Shown piece after piece: positions 5,414 to 36,670 of a DNA stretch of 37,358 bases (position 1 is its first letter; every line of letters starts with the position of its first letter). The stretch is taken from contig JARLHO010000070.1 in the NCBI GenBank assembly GCA_031292215.1, forward strand, positions 1 to 37,358, given 5' to 3'. This DNA is from Syntrophobacteraceae bacterium (GTDB lineage Bacteria; Desulfobacterota; Syntrophobacteria; Syntrophobacterales; Syntrophobacteraceae). The notes below the pieces were generated by a model, which ran no database searches, was not told the DNA's origin, and saw only the letters and a list, made by a program, of their open reading frames with translations. The position numbers and the translations under genes are program-made.

Positions 5414-7111
5414 CTACCTGTTGGCGTCGAGTTTTGTCCTGCTATCCTTTGCCCCCGACCGCTTGAACAAGATAGCCTTGCGGAAGGCTTCGTTGGCCAG
5501 GGCCTTTTTCCCGAGCTTCCTGTAGACATCGCCCAGATGCTCCTGGATGACCGGATCTTGGGGCACGTGCTTTACCGCCTCAAGAAGTGCGTCAAGGGCT
5601 TTCTTGCGTTTTCCCATTTTGAAATAGACCCAGCCAAGGCTATCCATTATATAGCCATCATCGGGGGAAATACTAAGGGCCTGGAGGATCAATTCCCTGG
5701 CTTCCAGAAGGTGTATCCCCCGGTCAGCGTAGGAGTAGCCTATAAAATTCAGGGCATCGGCGTTTTTGGGCTGGGCAGCGAGGATTTCGCGCATTACCGC
5801 GACAGCTTTCTCGTCTTTTCCCATCTTCGAGAGGACTACGCCTTTTCGAAAGAGCAGCCCGGGGTTTGCGGGCAGAACTTTCAGGCCGCGATTAAGGGCT
5901 TCCAGAGCATCGTCGTTTCGGCCGGTATCCTCATAAACTTTTGCCAGGTTGATGTATAGATCGCTTGCCGCGGGGTTTATGGCGATAGCCCCGTTTAGCA
6001 CTCCGGCGCTATGTTTATAATCTTTTAGTTTCGCATAAACCATGGCCAGGCGCGACTGCGCAGCATTCCAAATCTGGCTTGACGAGGGGATGGCGGACAA
6101 GTTGCGAATCGCACCTGAGAAGTCGAGCCTTTCCTCGTCTGCAAGCGCCAGGTAGTAGAGTGCCTGATCGTATGTGGGATTAGCTTTGAGCAGGAGCCGA
6201 AAATCGTCCGCGGCATCCTTAAAGTCTTTCTGCCGAATGTGGATAATCCCGATCTTCAGGCGGCTTTCCATGTCCTTGGGGTCGATTGCGAGCAAACGGT
6301 CGAACTGCCGGATCGCATCGTCTCCCTTATCCTGGCGCATATAAAGGTTTCCAAGCCTTGAAAGCGCCTGCGGGTTGGCCGGATTGGCGCCCAGCATTTC
6401 GAGATAGGTCTTTTCGGCCTCCCGCGGGTGATCGCTTACTTCATAGATGTAGGCCAGGTCGAGCAATCCATCCTCAAAACCGGGCTCTTTGGCAAGCAAC
6501 TGCTTTAGTATCTGCTCTGCCTGGTCATAATATTTCATATCCAGGAAAATCCGCGCCTTGTAGTAGAGAGGCAAAGGATTGTCGGGCACGATTTCCTGGA
6601 GTCGGTCAAAAGTGTCGATAGCCTCATTGAAGCGACCCTGCTGCGCGTACAAAACGCCCAGCAGCAAATAGGCCTCGGAGGCCGAAGGGTCGAGCTCAAC
6701 GGCCCGCCGGTAGGCCTTGGCGCCATCGTCTAAACGGCCCTTTCTCACATAGACCTGGCCCAGCAACAGAAAGGTCCTCGATCGATCCGGGGAGGTCCGG
6801 ATCGCTTGTTCAAGCAGTTTGAGCGCCGGGTCGAGCTTGTTTTGGCGCAAATAGAGCGAAGCCAGTTCGGTTTGGAGCACCGGCGAGCAGGGGTCGATCT
6901 TTAGCGCCTTGCCGTAAGCTTCTATTGCTTTATCGTAGTGTTTTTCGTTAACATATTGCTGAGCGGCCAAATACTCGTAGTAGGCTTGGGCCCGCACGTC
7001 CAGAGGGGCCTGCGCCACGGGGGCCGACAAGGGCGTTCGCAGCAGAGCCTGGCTGCAACCGGAGAGAAGAACCACGGATAAAAGACAAACGAGCAAGCGC
7101 GTAGAAGTCAT
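5414..7111 (-). CDS. TPR-repeat lipoprotein
   Basis: A 565-residue protein with a lipoprotein signal (LLSGC, Cys19) followed by about a dozen or more tetratricopeptide repeats running nearly to the C-terminus. Repeats such as 'YDKAIEAYGKALKIDP', 'DDGAKAYRRAVELDP' and 'DDALEALNRGLKVLP' show the TPR consensus. It probably sits at the outer membrane facing the periplasm as a protein-interaction scaffold. The last repeats (YIMDSLGWVYFKMGK, VIQEHLGDVYRKLGK) match a type common in Desulfobacterota envelope proteins. It is the first gene of the minus-strand operon that continues with the LolB-like lipoprotein. The upstream 158 bp are shared with the divergent MEMO gene. Confidence 0.85.
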   Translation of the reverse strand: MTSTRLLVCLLSVVLLSGCSQALLRTPLSAPVAQAPLDVRAQAYYEYLAAQQYVNEKHYDKAIEAYGKALKIDPCSPVLQTELASLYLRQNKLDPALKLLEQAIRTSPDRSRTFLLLGQVYVRKGRLDDGAKAYRRAVELDPSASEAYLLLGVLYAQQGRFNEAIDTFDRLQEIVPDNPLPLYYKARIFLDMKYYDQAEQILKQLLAKEPGFEDGLLDLAYIYEVSDHPREAEKTYLEMLGANPANPQALSRLGNLYMRQDKGDDAIRQFDRLLAIDPKDMESRLKIGIIHIRQKDFKDAADDFRLLLKANPTYDQALYYLALADEERLDFSGAIRNLSAIPSSSQIWNAAQSRLAMVYAKLKDYKHSAGVLNGAIAINPAASDLYINLAKVYEDTGRNDDALEALNRGLKVLPANPGLLFRKGVVLSKMGKDEKAVAVMREILAAQPKNADALNFIGYSYADRGIHLLEARELILQALSISPDDGYIMDSLGWVYFKMGKRKKALDALLEAVKHVPQDPVIQEHLGDVYRKLGKKALANEAFRKAILFKRSGAKDSRTKLDANR

Positions 7112-11377: not shown

Positions 11378-13029
11378 TCACCGGTTGAAATGATCCTGGT
11401 AGAGAACGCGCATAGCTCTTTTTAAGATCTTGCCGCCGGGCGTTTTGGGCAGCTCGGTGCAGAAGAGCACTGCCTTGGGAACTTTAAACGGCGCGAGTTC
11501 TTTTTTACAAAGGTCTACGATCTCCTGTTCGCCGATCTTTTGTCCGGATTTGGGGACCACAACGGCTGTTACCGCTTCCACCCACCTCGGATGGCCCAGG
11601 CCGATCACCGCGACCTCCTGCACGCGGGCATCCCTGTAAATGGCTTCCTCGACCTCGCGGGTGGAAACGTTTTCCCCCCCGGTCTTTATCATGTCCTTTT
11701 TGCGGTCAACAACGCTCAGATAGCGGTCCTCATCGAGGACCCCAACGTCCCCGGAATGAAACCATCCGCCCCGCATCACCTCTTCGGTCTTCTCGGGCTC
11801 CTTGAAATACATCATCATGGCGTGGGCTCCCTTGCCGCAGATCTCAGCCGGGCAGCCGGCCGTTTCAACGGCTTGGCCCATCGCATCTTCCAAGCGCGTT
11901 TCCATGTTTAGCCCCCCCATGCCCGCCGCCCCCAGTTTCTTCAGGGCGTCTTTGGCCTTGAGGATGGTGTGATAGGGCGCAAGCTCGGTCTGACCGTAGA
12001 AGTTGTAAATTTGGGCGTCCGGAAATTTTTCCAGAAGTTCCTTTAAGATTTCGACGGGCATAATGGAAGCGCCGTAATAGCACTTTCTAAGACTGGTGAG
12101 ATCGTATTTGGCAAAATCCGGATGCCTCAACATGCCGATCCATACGGTTGGCGGGGCAAAGAACATCGTCGCCCTGTGTGCAGCAATGTTTTCTAGAATC
12201 GTAGTCAAATCCGGCGTGGTAAGCACGTTCGTGCCGCCGAGCCAGAAAATGGGAGTCATGAAAACGTCTCGCTGAGCGCAACGATAGATCGGGAGGGCGT
12301 TTACGGTAAGATCGTCTTCGGTGAACCCGCCGTCCACGATTGCTCCCATGTACTGGGCCATGAGCGCCTGATTGTTAAGGATAACGCCCTTGGGAAGCGA
12401 TTCGGCGCCGCTCGTATAAGTCATCTGACAGGGGTCTTCAATGCGCAGGCAAACGTCGGGCTCTTCCGGCGAACTGTTTTTATACCAGGCCTCAAAATCC
12501 CGGAACCGGTCGTGCTCCGGCGGTTTGCCGCTTCCCCGGTCGGACCAGATGAGGGTTTTTACTCCCGGCATTTCGTCCAGCACCTCTTTTACCAGGTCGT
12601 AGAGGGCATCTTCGACTATTAGAACTTTGCTTTCGGAATGGTTGCCGCAATAGGCGATGTCTTTGCCACGCAGCATGTAATTTAGCGCGAGGTAGACAGC
12701 GCCCGCCTTGCAGCAGCCAAACCATGTCAAAACGTGGTGGAGGTATTGTGGGCAAGGATCGCCACGCGGTCAAAGCGCGCAACGCCAAGGCCCAGGATGC
12801 TGTTTGCGACCCTGTTGCAGTCGTCTTCGAGGGCGGCGTAGGTGAGGGTCCGGTCGCCGAACACAACCGCAGGCTTATCCGGAAAGCGGTAGCGGCTGCG
12901 GCGCAAAATGTCCGCTATCACCCAGCGGTTTACCCGGTTGTACCGGTTAAGGAGAAATTCAACGTTTTCCCTGTTGATTGTTTGGTATCTGGACCTGTCC
13001 GGTTCGCTCAAAAGTTTCCAATCGACCAT
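11378..13029 (-). pseudogene. Long-/medium-chain acyl-CoA ligase (AMP-forming), single-base frameshift
   Basis: The reading frame is split in two: residues 1-100 (13029 to about 12740) and the remaining 450 residues (to 11378). Together they make one ANL-superfamily acyl-CoA synthetase of about 550 residues. Adding one base near 12740 (minus strand CTCCACCACG to CTCCCACCACG) restores '...ILAHNTSHHVLTWFGCC...' and gives exactly 551 codons including stop, so nothing else is missing. Later motifs are intact: YTSGAESLPKGV (A3, with Ala in place of the usual Thr), YNFYGQTE (A5), GWFHSGD and DRKKDMIKTGGENVS (A7-A8), and KTPGGKILK with the catalytic Lys (A10). A good GAGGAG site precedes ATG 13029. 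It would activate fatty or aromatic acids with ATP and CoA. Either a recent pseudogene or a sequence error. Confidence 0.85.
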
Positions 13030-19424: not shown

Positions 19425-20036
19425 GGTGAGTAGGCCGGGGGAATCCCACCCCCAGCCTCTCGCAGAACTTACAATTACCCACACATGCGCCCACCTATCT
19501 CCTTTTGCAAAGTTGCAAATAAGGGGGGCGAGCGAGCCCAGCCGGTCCATGCGCGTCATGGCAAGCGGCTGGAGAGTAAATCCCCCCAACCCCTTGCAAA
19601 AAAGGGGGGTCGATCAGGCCAAGCCCCTTTCTTGGGAGTCTCCGCTAAGGGGTAAGTGGGCGTATGTGTGGGTAATTGTCAGCTCTCAGAAGGGTGCGGG
19701 AGCCTCTCGACTCACACCGCTCCCATCAAGCAAACGAGGTCATCGTCCTTTTCCAGTGAACAAACAGATGCGGCTCCCTTTTCGCAACGGCTGCCGGGAA
19801 GTTCGCAGCTCGGGTCTTTTGACCCAGGCAATCAACGTAAGGTCGAAATGCCTCAAGACCGGCTCTATGGCCGACCCATGAAATTCGCCCATAGTAATTC
19901 AGCCAACCCCGAAGCATGGGATTGAACATCCGGGCGATCTGCGTCAGCCCAAGGTCCGCTCGGTTGCGAACGTTCCATTGGCGCGTGGTTTGCCCCATGG
20001 CCGCGAGAGCCTTCGAACTTACCGCCGGCGTAGCCC
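19425..20036 (-). pseudogene. Decayed group II intron 3' end: maturase C-terminus, domains V and VI
   Basis: Reading the minus strand from 20036 to 19726, the frame gives the C-terminal maturase part of a group II intron reverse transcriptase: TPAVSSKALAAM, LGLTQIARMFNPMLRGWLNYYGR and KREPHLFVHWKR are family signatures. The RT core is missing. After the stop, 19716-19683 resembles intron domain V (GAGCGGTGTGAGTCGAGAG...), and 19467-19425 resembles domain VI ending near CCTACTCACC. Between these two lies a 215-bp inserted element (19468-19682). The left edge of the remnant at about 20036 abuts a different decayed gene, so a deletion or rearrangement truncated it. It cannot splice or code for a maturase now. 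Confidence 0.78.
19468..19682. mobile_element. MITE-like element, full copy 2 (215 bp), inserted in the intron remnant
   Basis: Same 215-bp length and about 95% identical to copy 1 by eye. The ends are CTTACAATTACCCACACAT... and ...GGGTAATTGTCAG. The flanking nonamers are CTCGCAGAA (59-67 of 194xx) and CTCTCAGAA (19683-19691), one mismatch apart, as expected from an old target duplication. Removing the element rejoins group II intron domain V and VI sequence, which shows insertion into DNA that was contiguous before. Confidence 0.85.
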
Positions 20037-20041
20037 ACCTG

Positions 20042-20470
20042 CACCACTGCGAGTATCGAACCATATCGATTACAGCGGCCTGTGGATCGATCCTTGAGAT
20101 GTAGCGGATGCTTCTGGGACAACTGGGTGTGAAGACCTCAAGTTCGTCACGGGCTTTTCTTTTGGGGCGCATAAGACACGAGATATGCGCCCTGGTGTGC
20201 GAAAAGAAGATGAAAATCGTGCCCATAGTCGATGAAGCCTCGCTTTTAAGGCTCGAAGTCTTTTCCGAACTCCACACCATGTGTCAGTTCGAACTCGATT
20301 CCAAGCCGTGGCTGCCCGTCATCCTGGCGGGTCAGTCACACCTTATCGATAAGCCGATGTATCCCGGTTCGCGCCCCCTGGCCTCAAGAATCGTTGCCAG
20401 GTCCCACCTTGAGGGCGCAGATCGCAGACAAAATGGAAGTCTATCTTGCCAATTTTCACCAAGAAAAAGA
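20042..20470 (+). pseudogene. Decayed ExeA/TniB-like AAA+ ATPase
   Basis: In one frame, HHCEYRTISITAACGSILEM is followed by a TAG (20102-20104), then MLLGQLGVKTSSSSRAFL, KKMKIVPIVDEASLLRLEVF (Walker B type IVDEA), SKPWLPVILAGQS, and SRPLASRIVARSHLEGADR. The order matches ExeA/TniB-like transposition ATPases. The N-terminus with the Walker A loop is absent: the homologous region begins at about 20042, next to the group II intron fragment. Near 20425 the frame shifts (DKMEVYLANFH appears in another frame). It is an inactive remnant of a mobile element, and its partner transposase is not visible. Confidence 0.7.
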
Positions 20471-21085
20471 TCGAAACGACTTTTACAAAAATATGCAGGT
20501 CTTATATCTTCCTGGACAGCAGCGCTGTCATTGTTTCTCTTAATTCCACTCTTCCCGTTGGCGACTCCTTGATCTTTGCAACGAAATCAAAAGAGGCACA
20601 ATTGACGGAATTATAGAGGAAGAGGACTCCGATCTCGCGATAGCAGCGCTAACGGGCAAGTTTACGATGACCGGACTTCAATCGCCCCCTATGGCCGCCC
20701 CCCTGGAACGATTCGAAGCAGCCGATTGCGATCCACGAGTTTGTCGAGTCGATTCTGACCGAAGGCGGCCATCCGATTGAGGGCGACCGCGCCTACGGCG
20801 CACAAAATCCGGACGGCGTCTGCACCTGCACGCATGGAGACTAAGGCTCGGGGAAGCTCCTGAGCCTAAAGACTCCAATCCCGGGCGGCTGGCCCGATGT
20901 GTCCGAGATGGATTGCTCCCTGCGAGGATATTTGCTGCGGCAAAGAGCTGTCTACAGGCTTGGGCGGTTGAGTAAGGCTTGACCACTTTTATAAGCTGCG
21001 AGCGTAATTTTGTTTGACGCATGACAATGTTAGTGGTATCTAACTTTCGTCCTTGACTCCCGCCTCCCCGTAAATAAACAAGGCT
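20471..21085. other. Unassigned decayed sequence
   Basis: No intact gene. Short coding-like runs appear in several plus frames, for example a stretch around 20510-20590 (FLDSSAVIVSLNSTLPVGDSL), one around 20580-20680 (GTIDGIIEEEDSDLAIAAL) and one around 20715-20845 (IAIHEFVESILTEGGHPIEG) that ends at a TAA. I do not recognise these. The pattern of frame changes suggests remnants of one or more genes decaying together with the neighbouring mobile DNA. Confidence 0.4.
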
Positions 21086-33918: not shown

Positions 33919-34003
33919 TGGTTGACGACAAAGGCGGTGGCATCCCCTTCCGAGTAATTGTATTTCCCGAATAGTCGGTTGTCGAAATGATCGCAGGAGA
34001 GCC

Positions 34004-34850
34004 ATGCGCCGCGCAACCTCATTACTCCTGTTTTTTTTCATTTTCCTCTTTTTTTTTTGCTCCATGGACTCCGACTTTGGCCGGGCCTCCCTTTAGAACC
34101 GACGACCCCCAACCCGTCGACTATCGGCACTGGGAATTCTACCTTGCGTCCCAGTATCAAAAAAATACGGGGGGCGTTAGCGCCACCGCCCCTCACGTTG
34201 AAATCAACTACGGGGTCCGCCCCGATTTTCAGCTCCATCTCATTTTGCCCATGGAGTACGCAAAACCGCGGGGTCAGCCATCTCATTACGGATACTCGGA
34301 TACCGAACTCGGGCTGAAGTGGCGATTCTACAGCGAGAAACGGAAAAAATTCATGGCCGGGAGCTTTCCCCTTGTGGAAATCCCTACGGGAGAGGAATCA
34401 AGGGGTCTTGGAAACGGCGCCCCCCAGGTATTTATCCCACTATGGCTGCAAAAAGAATGGGGACCGTGGCTTTCCAATGTCGGGGGCGGCTACTGGTTTA
34501 ATTCCGGCGCCGGCCACAGGGACTTCCAGTTCCTGGGGGCAATGGTTCAGCGAGACGTAAACAGGTATTGGACTCTTGGCGCGGAAATTTTCTACCAGAC
34601 CCCGAGCGATAGTAGCGGCGCGCATGAAGTCGGGTTTAACGCAGGCGGCTTCCTCAAGCTGACTAAGAATCAGCAGATATTGTTTACCGCAGGGAGCGAT
34701 ATCCATGGTCCCAACAGCTTTTTCTATTACCTCGCTTATTACTTAACTTTTGGACCCGGGGAGGAAAAAGGGGGGTTGCGGACGCCAGGATTTCAAAAAG
34801 GGTGGCCACACTCATCGCCGGTAGACATCGCGAGGTTGGAGCGAGAATAA
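34004..34850 (+). pseudogene. Outer-membrane barrel protein (transporter-like) with frameshift in the signal-peptide T-run
   Basis: ATG 34004 has AGGAG upstream and starts a signal peptide (MRRATSLLLFFFIFLFFF), but its frame ends at a TAG soon after. The rest of the protein (PWTPTLAGPPFRTDDPQPVDYRHWEFYLA ... in order, to 34850) lies in another frame. A run of ten T at 34049-34058 joins them; nine T would give one protein with a signal peptide cut near TLA/GPP and about 281 residues. The mature part has alternating beta-strand character and resembles the 'transporter' outer-membrane family (MetA-pathway/phenol-degradation type). The alternative start at 33987 stays in the downstream frame but lacks a ribosome site. 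Could be phase-variable, slippage-rescued, a recent pseudogene or a sequencing error. Confidence 0.75.
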
Positions 34851-34912: not shown

Positions 34913-35044
34913 ACCCCCACGGGTTTCGGGTCCCACCCATCCCGGGCCTGATACCAGATTGCGTTAAAGACCGCCCTTGCCGCCCCGGGCAGATGAGTTT
35001 AGACTACGGCACGGGTGGATGAACCCGATCGCAAGGAGTGGCCA

Positions 35045-36670
35045 ATGCCAGCAGACGTAGTAAAACTCGATGACAGGCGGCTAAGAAAAACCGGGGCCGC
35101 ACAGCTTGCCCGGGAGCTCATGGGCCTTCCCGCCAAACGGCGCCTGGAGCTTATTTTGGAAAGGCCCGACGCCCAATCGGTTACGAGGGCTCTGGAGGCA
35201 AACGATTTTTTCCACACGATCCAGGAAATCGGCCCCGACGACAGTCTATCGCTTCTTGCCCTGGCCAGCATCGAGCAGGTCAATCACCTCTTTGACATCG
35301 AGTGGTGGCGAAGGGACAGCCTGGAGCCCGCCAAAGCCCTTGCCTGGCTCGAGCGGCTAACCGGCGCGGGCGAAGAAAAGCTTTTCGAATGGATTTCCAA
35401 GGCCGACTACGAGCTGTTGGTAACTCTTTTCAAGCAATGGATATCGGTCGATACCGCCCCCGAGGACATCGACATGATCGAGGCCGCCGAGAGCCTGCCG
35501 CCAATGAGCCTGGACAACTTTTACTTCTGGGAATCGCGATACCCGCAGTTCGACGACCTTATCACCCAGATGCTCACGATTATCTTTGAGACCAACTACG
35601 TTTTTTTTAAAGAACTCCTAAACAGCGTCATTTACGCACCGGCCCCGGAGGTCGAGGAAAGCGCCCTGCGCTTCCATCGCGCAAGGCTCGAAGACCACGG
35701 TATTCCCGATTTCTACGACGCCCTGGAGATCTATCGGGTGATCGGAGCAGGCGAATTCACAGAAAAGATCGTGTTTGCCCAAGGTGAGGCTGCGCCTGCG
35801 GCCCCTACTTTCGCCCTTGCCCTTTTGCCCCCGCAGGACCTTTTCGCAAAGACCCTCGCAAGGCTAGAGGACCCGGATCTGGTCGAAACCCTTCAGGCCG
35901 AGACCGCCGCCCTGGCAAACAAGGTCATCATTGCCGATCAGATTGCCCCCGATGATGCACGGGCGCTTCGGCGGGCCGTGGACAAAACGCTTGCCTACAT
36001 CAACCTGGGGCTCGAACTGCGCTCGGGGGCAAACCTGGAGAAGGCCTCACAAATTGTTGGCAACAATTTCCTGGAGCATCTTTTCAGGCTTGCCCAGGCC
36101 GAGGTGGCACGGGTGCGGGGACGGCTAAGGAAAACGGTTGCGGGGGGGATAAAGCACCTCGACGGCGAGTGGCACGAGGGGGCCGAGGAGCTTTTGGCCA
36201 CTACCCCGAAAATCTTTCGGAGCGGGCGAACCTCGTATGATTTTTTCCGGACCCCTTCGGACCTGGCAAGGGCCAGTCATTTTGTTGACGTTATCATCGC
36301 GGCCGGCGACCTGTACAAGCGGCTGACCGGGAACACGAGGGAACCCGGCACGGCATCGGGGGAGGATGTAACGGTTGGGATGGTTGTACTGACCGCTGCG
36401 GCCAACCTGCTGCTATCGGGCAAATGGAGCGCGCAACCTCTGCGGCAGCCCTCCTGGCCCGAGATTTTTTCTTCCGTACACCCTCGCACAATCCGCGGAG
36501 CGGTGACCAAGGGGATCGAGGGCACGGTTAGCGAGGCCAAAAGAAGATCTCTTGTCCTGACCTATCTTGACCCCATTTTGCGGGACTACGAACTGGAAAT
36601 GGGTGCGTTTTCCCTTAAAGGCCCGCCGGACCCGCAGCTTGTCAGGTTTTTTGTTTTCACTGAAGAGTGA
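35045..36670 (+). CDS. DUF6178-family protein
   Basis: A 541-residue soluble protein, all helical by composition, of the DUF6178 family known mainly from Desulfobacterota. The N-terminal region (AQLARELMGLPAKRRLELILERPDAQ) and the middle (FFHTIQEIGPDDSLSLLALASIEQVNHLFDIEWWRRDSLEPAKALAWLERL) carry the family pattern. There are no Cys clusters, no signal peptide and no catalytic motif I recognise. I chose ATG 35045 because AAGGAG precedes it; an in-frame ATG at 35015 lacks such a site. The function is not known and the neighbours (barrel protein, repeats) do not help. Confidence 0.82.
   Translation: MPADVVKLDDRRLRKTGAAQLARELMGLPAKRRLELILERPDAQSVTRALEANDFFHTIQEIGPDDSLSLLALASIEQVNHLFDIEWWRRDSLEPAKALAWLERLTGAGEEKLFEWISKADYELLVTLFKQWISVDTAPEDIDMIEAAESLPPMSLDNFYFWESRYPQFDDLITQMLTIIFETNYVFFKELLNSVIYAPAPEVEESALRFHRARLEDHGIPDFYDALEIYRVIGAGEFTEKIVFAQGEAAPAAPTFALALLPPQDLFAKTLARLEDPDLVETLQAETAALANKVIIADQIAPDDARALRRAVDKTLAYINLGLELRSGANLEKASQIVGNNFLEHLFRLAQAEVARVRGRLRKTVAGGIKHLDGEWHEGAEELLATTPKIFRSGRTSYDFFRTPSDLARASHFVDVIIAAGDLYKRLTGNTREPGTASGEDVTVGMVVLTAAANLLLSGKWSAQPLRQPSWPEIFSSVHPRTIRGAVTKGIEGTVSEAKRRSLVLTYLDPILRDYELEMGAFSLKGPPDPQLVRFFVFTEE

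What the first reader, a model, noticed from the sequence alone, without database searches (positions are those of the whole stretch)
34004..34120. Ten-T run puts the barrel protein's signal peptide out of frame: slippage or phase variation candidate
A good ribosome site and signal peptide lie in one frame and the long intact barrel sequence lies in another, joined by a homopolymer of ten T (34049-34058). A change to nine T restores a complete secreted protein. The downstream frame is otherwise undamaged over about 260 codons, which argues for a recent change, a switch, or a read error. Long T or A runs are known sites for polymerase slippage, and surface proteins are frequent targets of phase variation.
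Basis: partly seen in the sequence, partly recalled or inferred. Interest (0 to 1): 0.6.

Follow-up and report, generated by a model that had tools for sequence, protein, structure and literature searches.

The report
One-base T-run frameshift, outer-membrane channel gene
In this uncultured bacterium's draft genome, one extra T in a run of ten separates the export signal of an ordinary outer-membrane channel from the rest of the protein; this looks like a common one-base slip (real, or introduced in sequencing) and not like an evolved on/off switch.

Summary
T10 lies at 34049-34058. A Shine-Dalgarno/ATG (34004) signal-peptide frame ends 30 codons later at a TAG (34094). An undamaged barrel frame runs to 34850. 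A change of one in the T-run would join them, but so would a change in the neighbouring T8 (34031-34038).

The barrel is a COG4313/PF13557-type 12-strand channel. Of 32 relatives, 30 keep a hydrophobic leader in frame with the barrel (29 behind a nearby in-frame start). None has a run of 8 or more in the leader, so the tract is not a conserved switch.

The same draft genome holds eight Pfam-supported genes with in-frame T/A runs of 9-10, including a T10 leader. A frameshift scan of 400 kb of other contigs, 80% sensitive, gave no clear case. Yet this 37-kb contig has a second one-base frameshift, in an acyl-CoA synthetase, outside any homopolymer. Two barrel relatives in other drafts are also broken at non-slippery sites.

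Verdict: an ordinary single-base indel in an incidental slippery T-run of an accessory gene. If real, it is probably leaky through RNA-polymerase slippage. A read or PCR error cannot be excluded. Dedicated phase variation or programmed slippage is not supported.

The parts
33995..33999 (+). Shine-Dalgarno AGGAG for the ATG at 34004
   Evidence: sequence; duplex energy -7.4 kcal/mol
34004..34096 (+). 30-codon signal-peptide ORF, out of frame with the barrel, ending TAG 34094-34096
   Evidence: (frame 2)
34031..34038 (+). T8 run, an alternative site for the same one-base shift
34049..34058 (+). T10 run, the most likely site of the frame change
33987..34850 (+). open frame carrying the barrel; its ATG has no Shine-Dalgarno and its n-region no Lys/Arg
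34077..34850 (+). mature part, COG4313/PF13557-like outer-membrane channel: 12 long strands plus a low-confidence C-terminal tail
   Evidence: AlphaFold2 pLDDT 82.7, pTM 0.79; Foldseek hits FapF 5o68 and COG4313 channel 4rl8; PF13557 matched by 13 of 17 aligned sequences, not by this one

Best explanation
The gene encodes an ordinary Sec-exported outer-membrane channel whose leader is Phe-rich and therefore T-rich. In the assembled strain a poly-T tract in that leader is one base out of register (T10; T9 or T12 would be in frame, and the T8 could also be the changed tract). Most ribosomes starting at 34004 would make a 30-residue dead-end peptide. Inferred: the change is a recent replication-slippage indel in an accessory gene. 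Inferred from published E. coli work: RNA polymerase would itself slip on ten T in a fraction of transcripts, so the gene would be leaky and not null, and the same tract could revert readily. The tract is incidental and is not an evolved switch.
For: Shown: the T10, SD, leader and stop, and an undamaged barrel. Of 32 relatives, 30 carry a hydrophobic leader in the barrel frame; the congeneric copies read MPRIAVGLPAFFFVLYFFLFPA|LAGPP (L002) and VRRIPP...PFPA|MAGPP (L015). Codon-position differences from L002 are 0.25/0.18/0.58, as expected for long purifying selection. The gene is accessory: close copies in 1 of 10 congeners and 11 of 394 other genomes of the phylum, and it is not next to DUF6178 in the congeneric loci compared. 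The homopolymer behaves normally elsewhere: eight Pfam-supported genes with T/A9-10 tracts are in frame, one being an AsmA-type leader with T10. In 400 kb of other contigs no clear mid-gene frameshift was seen by a scan that finds 80% of simulated ones, so the assembly is not generally full of indels. Literature: E. coli RNAP slips on seven or more T, with about 10% deletion-type rescue at T8 (PMC6260861); A/T runs of nine are commonly avoided as slippage-prone (PMC1088944); indel formation and bypass rise together with run length (PMC3812077).
Against: No reads, transcripts or second strain were available, so the T10 itself is not independently confirmed. A second one-base frameshift in the same 37-kb contig, in an acyl-CoA synthetase and outside any homopolymer, raises the chance that this contig carries assembly errors. 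Transcriptome-wide data find deletions rarely tied to homopolymers in E. coli (PMC5574713), which weakens the leakiness step because the rescue here needs one U fewer (or two more).
Confidence: 0.5

Rival explanations
1. Consensus, PCR or read error: the real genome has an in-frame tract and the gene is ordinary and intact.
For: The acyl-CoA synthetase in the same contig has another one-base frameshift in a non-slippery place. Two of 32 barrel relatives in other draft genomes are also shifted at non-slippery places (L012, L157). Two contigs of this genome hold poly-G/poly-C junk, so base-level artefacts exist. Singleton frameshifts with BLAST support are usually taken as sequencing errors (PMC3711429).
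Against: The other T/A9-10 tracts in Pfam-supported genes are in frame (8 of 8). A scan of 400 kb of other contigs found no clear frameshift at 80% sensitivity.
Confidence: 0.35
2. Phase variation by slipped-strand mispairing: the T-run is a maintained switch for a surface protein.
For: A long T-run near the 5' end of a surface-protein gene, where one step toggles the frame. Poly-T tracts of variable length are known in Neisseria (PMC5084427).
Against: No relative has a run of 8 or more in the leader (longest T7). The genome's other long intragenic A/T tracts are in ordinary genes such as ligase D, MTHFR, ComEC and a penicillin-binding protein. The hydrophobic Phe codons explain the run without selection.
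Confidence: 0.07
3. Programmed recoding: transcriptional slippage (as in tssM) or +1 ribosomal slippage on UUU UGC sets a fixed ratio of exported channel to short peptide.
For: The run is long enough for RNAP slippage (PMC1088944, PMC6260861). Citrobacter tssM is rescued at about 20-25% through an A11 tract (PMC4256274).
Against: The tract and the split frame are found in no relative. The upstream product is only a 30-residue leader, with no plausible role of its own. No stop codon sits directly at the shift site and no internal SD stimulator is evident in the sequence.
Confidence: 0.04
4. The annotated frame is right as it stands: translation starts at ATG 33987 and the leader MIAGEPCAAQPHYSCFFSFSSFFFAPWTPT works.
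For: The frame is open from 33987 and contains a hydrophobic stretch.
Against: No SD (-2.4 against -7.4 kcal/mol), no Lys/Arg before the hydrophobic core, and a strong SD-ATG in another frame lies just downstream.
Confidence: 0.04

Closest known systems
COG4313 / PF13557 (Phenol_MetA_deg) outer-membrane channels; Pput2725 (PDB 4rl8, PMC4493636) and FapF (5o68)
   Same: Predicted 12-strand barrel, Foldseek E about 1e-9 to 1e-10, TM about 0.7; 13 of 17 aligned sequences match PF13557.
   Different: The window protein itself gives no Pfam match; about 15-18% identity to the solved structures; leader out of frame.
Transcriptional-slippage rescue of an interrupted gene (Citrobacter rodentium tssM, A11; PMC4256274)
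   Same: One-base-off frame at a run of ten or more A/T.
   Different: There the split and both products are functional and shown in RNA and protein; here the tract is unique to one draft genome and nothing is measured.
Homopolymer phase variation of surface proteins in Neisseria (PMC5084427, PMC3786947)
   Same: Homopolymer near the start of a surface-protein gene.
   Different: There tract polymorphism is shown across strains and by deep sequencing; here there is no conservation and no polymorphism data.

Membership tests
COG4313/PF13557 outer-membrane channel | 12-strand barrel fold | tested here: met
COG4313/PF13557 outer-membrane channel | match to the Pfam model | tested here: inconclusive
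   window protein no match at E<=1; 13 of 17 aligned sequences match
COG4313/PF13557 outer-membrane channel | Sec signal peptide in frame with the barrel | tested here: not met
   out of frame in the sequence as given; in frame in 30 of 32 relatives
SSR phase-variable locus | simple repeat whose length sets the reading frame | tested here: met
   T10
SSR phase-variable locus | tract kept in related genes | tested here: not met
   longest leader run 7 in 32 relatives
SSR phase-variable locus | length polymorphism in a population | not testable with these tools
   no reads, one genome per species
Programmed transcriptional slippage | A/T run of nine or more | tested here: met
   T10; threshold from PMC1088944
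Programmed transcriptional slippage | conserved split frame or slippery site among homologues | tested here: not met
   the two other frameshifted relatives break at different, non-slippery places
Programmed transcriptional slippage | heterogeneous transcripts | not testable with these tools
   no RNA data
Pseudogene | disabling lesion in an otherwise homologous gene | tested here: met
Pseudogene | further decay in the body of the gene | tested here: not met
   no other stop or shift over 257 codons

The most novel reading that the evidence does not exclude
A T-tract switch, or leaky RNA-polymerase slippage used as a rheostat, controls export of a COG4313-type channel in an uncultured environmental bacterium.
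Probability: 0.06. Interest if true: 0.45.

Novelty: already known. Interest (0 to 1): 0.13.

Why it matters
Mostly as a caution. Phe-rich signal peptides create long T-runs that slip in replication, transcription or sequencing, so a split leader in a draft genome is weak evidence for phase variation. If the T10 were shown to be real and variable, it would give a simple test of slippage-tuned porin export in an environmental, uncultured lineage.

Tried and rejected
Coding-potential frame calls around each long A/T run and ORF-spanning rules were too coarse, and were replaced by Pfam-supported controls and a simulated-deletion-calibrated scan. A first Viterbi frameshift finder returned nothing, not even the known acyl-CoA synthetase case, because a cheap gene boundary always won; it was dropped. 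Apparent frameshift candidates in other contigs were natural gene junctions on inspection. The TGA flagged in congener copy L011 is caused by an N gap, not a lesion. The idea that the C-terminal tail past the last strand is a second frameshift was rejected because congener L002 also has a tail. A cytosolic barrel starting at TTG 34077 was rejected: no SD and no export.

Full report
What is there. The sequence matches the description. AGGAG (33995-33999) precedes ATG 34004, which opens MRRATSLLLFFFIFLFFFCSMDSDFGRASL*, 30 codons ending at TAG 34094-34096. Ten T occupy 34049-34058. The barrel frame, one base out from that leader, is open from an ATG at 33987 to the stop ending at 34850. With one T fewer, or two more, the leader would run on as ...FFFAPWTPT|LAGPPFRTDDP. 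A T8 at 34031-34038 lies in the same leader and could equally be the tract that changed.

Which start is right. The hydrophobic appearance of the leader is not informative by itself, because T-rich DNA gives Phe, Leu and Ser in every frame. The case for ATG 34004 is its SD (-7.4 kcal/mol against -2.4 for ATG 33987), the early Arg-Arg, and the 24-residue distance to LAGPP, close to the 18-38 residues in relatives. The alternative start at 33987 has no SD and no basic n-region.

What the protein is. An AlphaFold2 model built from a 17-sequence alignment (pLDDT 82.7, pTM 0.79) has 12 long strands and a disordered tail. Foldseek finds FapF (5o68, E 2.6e-10) and the COG4313 channel Pput2725 (4rl8, E 3.7e-9) (PMC4493636). 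Thirteen of the 17 aligned sequences match PF13557, although this protein itself does not. It is an ordinary outer-membrane channel.

Relatives. Close copies are scattered: 1 of 10 congeneric genomes carries them (G003, with several copies, one of them lacking about 100 internal residues), and 11 of 394 other genomes sampled in the phylum; others come from MAGs labelled Syntrophaceae, Fibrobacteres, Ignavibacteriae, Zixiibacteriota and Verrucomicrobiota. In the congeneric DUF6178 loci the barrel is not the neighbour. Of 32 relatives, 30 have a hydrophobic leader in the barrel frame (29 with an in-frame start 12-45 codons upstream; L151 has its nearest ATG 56 codons upstream). The two exceptions, L012 (G025) and L157 (G319), are broken by single-base shifts at other, non-slippery places. 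No relative has a run of 8 or more in its leader; the longest is T7 in L002 and L153. The tract is therefore not a conserved feature. Codon-position differences from L002 (0.25, 0.18, 0.58) show long-term purifying selection on the barrel, which says nothing about the most recent past.

Is the assembly to blame? The window is a whole contig of a 177-contig draft genome (4.89 Mb, 96.9% complete). Two contigs hold poly-G/poly-C junk, so artefacts exist. On the other hand, other long A/T tracts in good genes are in frame: an AsmA-family leader with T10, ligase D, ComEC, a CHASE histidine kinase, a CheB-CheR protein, FTCD, MTHFR and a penicillin-binding protein. A coding-frame scan that recovers 96 of 120 simulated one-base deletions (with the weak-SD filter) produced, in 400 kb of other contigs, only junctions that look like natural gene ends on inspection. 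In the window it did flag one true case: an AMP-binding acyl-CoA synthetase on the minus strand, split near 12744, with PF00501 positions 2-56 in one frame and 62-384 in the next. Its congeners have intact frames and the alignment shows one base missing in a sequence that is not a homopolymer. Two one-base frameshifts in 37 kb against none evident in 400 kb suggests either local low-quality sequence in this contig or true gene decay; reads are needed to tell.

Mechanism. If the T10 is real, slippage by DNA polymerase in a Phe-codon T-run is the simplest cause. Published work predicts leakiness: E. coli RNAP slips on seven or more T, with about 10% deletion-type rescue at T8 in a GFP reporter (PMC6260861); runs of nine A/T are commonly selected against in coding regions (PMC1088944); indels at repeats and their bypass are correlated (PMC3812077). 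A caution is that, transcriptome-wide, deletions are seldom tied to homopolymers in E. coli (PMC5574713). The leaky-expression step is inference and was not measured here.

Against a switch. Phase-variable loci are recognised by length polymorphism among strains, and programmed slippage by a conserved site (classification scheme in PMC3711429; tssM example PMC4256274). Conservation was tested and not met; polymorphism could not be tested. A frameshift that belongs to no cluster of homologous frameshifts is, in that scheme, usually an indel or a sequencing error.

Verdict. The explanation is an ordinary one-base indel in an incidental slippery tract (about 0.5 real, about 0.35 read or PCR error). 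A dedicated switch or programmed slippage together hold about 0.1.

Noticed in passing
window 13029-11378, minus strand, break near 12744: An acyl-CoA synthetase (PF00501) gene is split by a one-base frameshift in a non-homopolymer context; congeners G001 and G005 have it intact.
   Followed up: yes
L012 (G025) and L157 (G319): Two relatives of the barrel gene in other draft genomes carry single-base frameshifts early in the mature part, at non-slippery positions.
   Followed up: partly
G000 contigs C126 (about 6138-6171) and C170 (about 94-111): Long alternating poly-G, poly-C and poly-T junk, apparently sequencing or assembly artefact.
   Followed up: no
L014/L015 (G003:C123): A congeneric copy of the barrel has an in-frame internal deletion of about 100 residues between residues 33 and 136.
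   Followed up: partly
window 19726-20572: Overlapping open frames on both strands resembling remnants of mobile elements: a group II intron maturase C-terminus by eye (minus strand) and an AAA_22 fragment (plus strand).
   Followed up: no
window 35015-36670: DUF6178 (PF19676) protein of unknown function, present in all 11 genomes of the genus searched.
   Followed up: no
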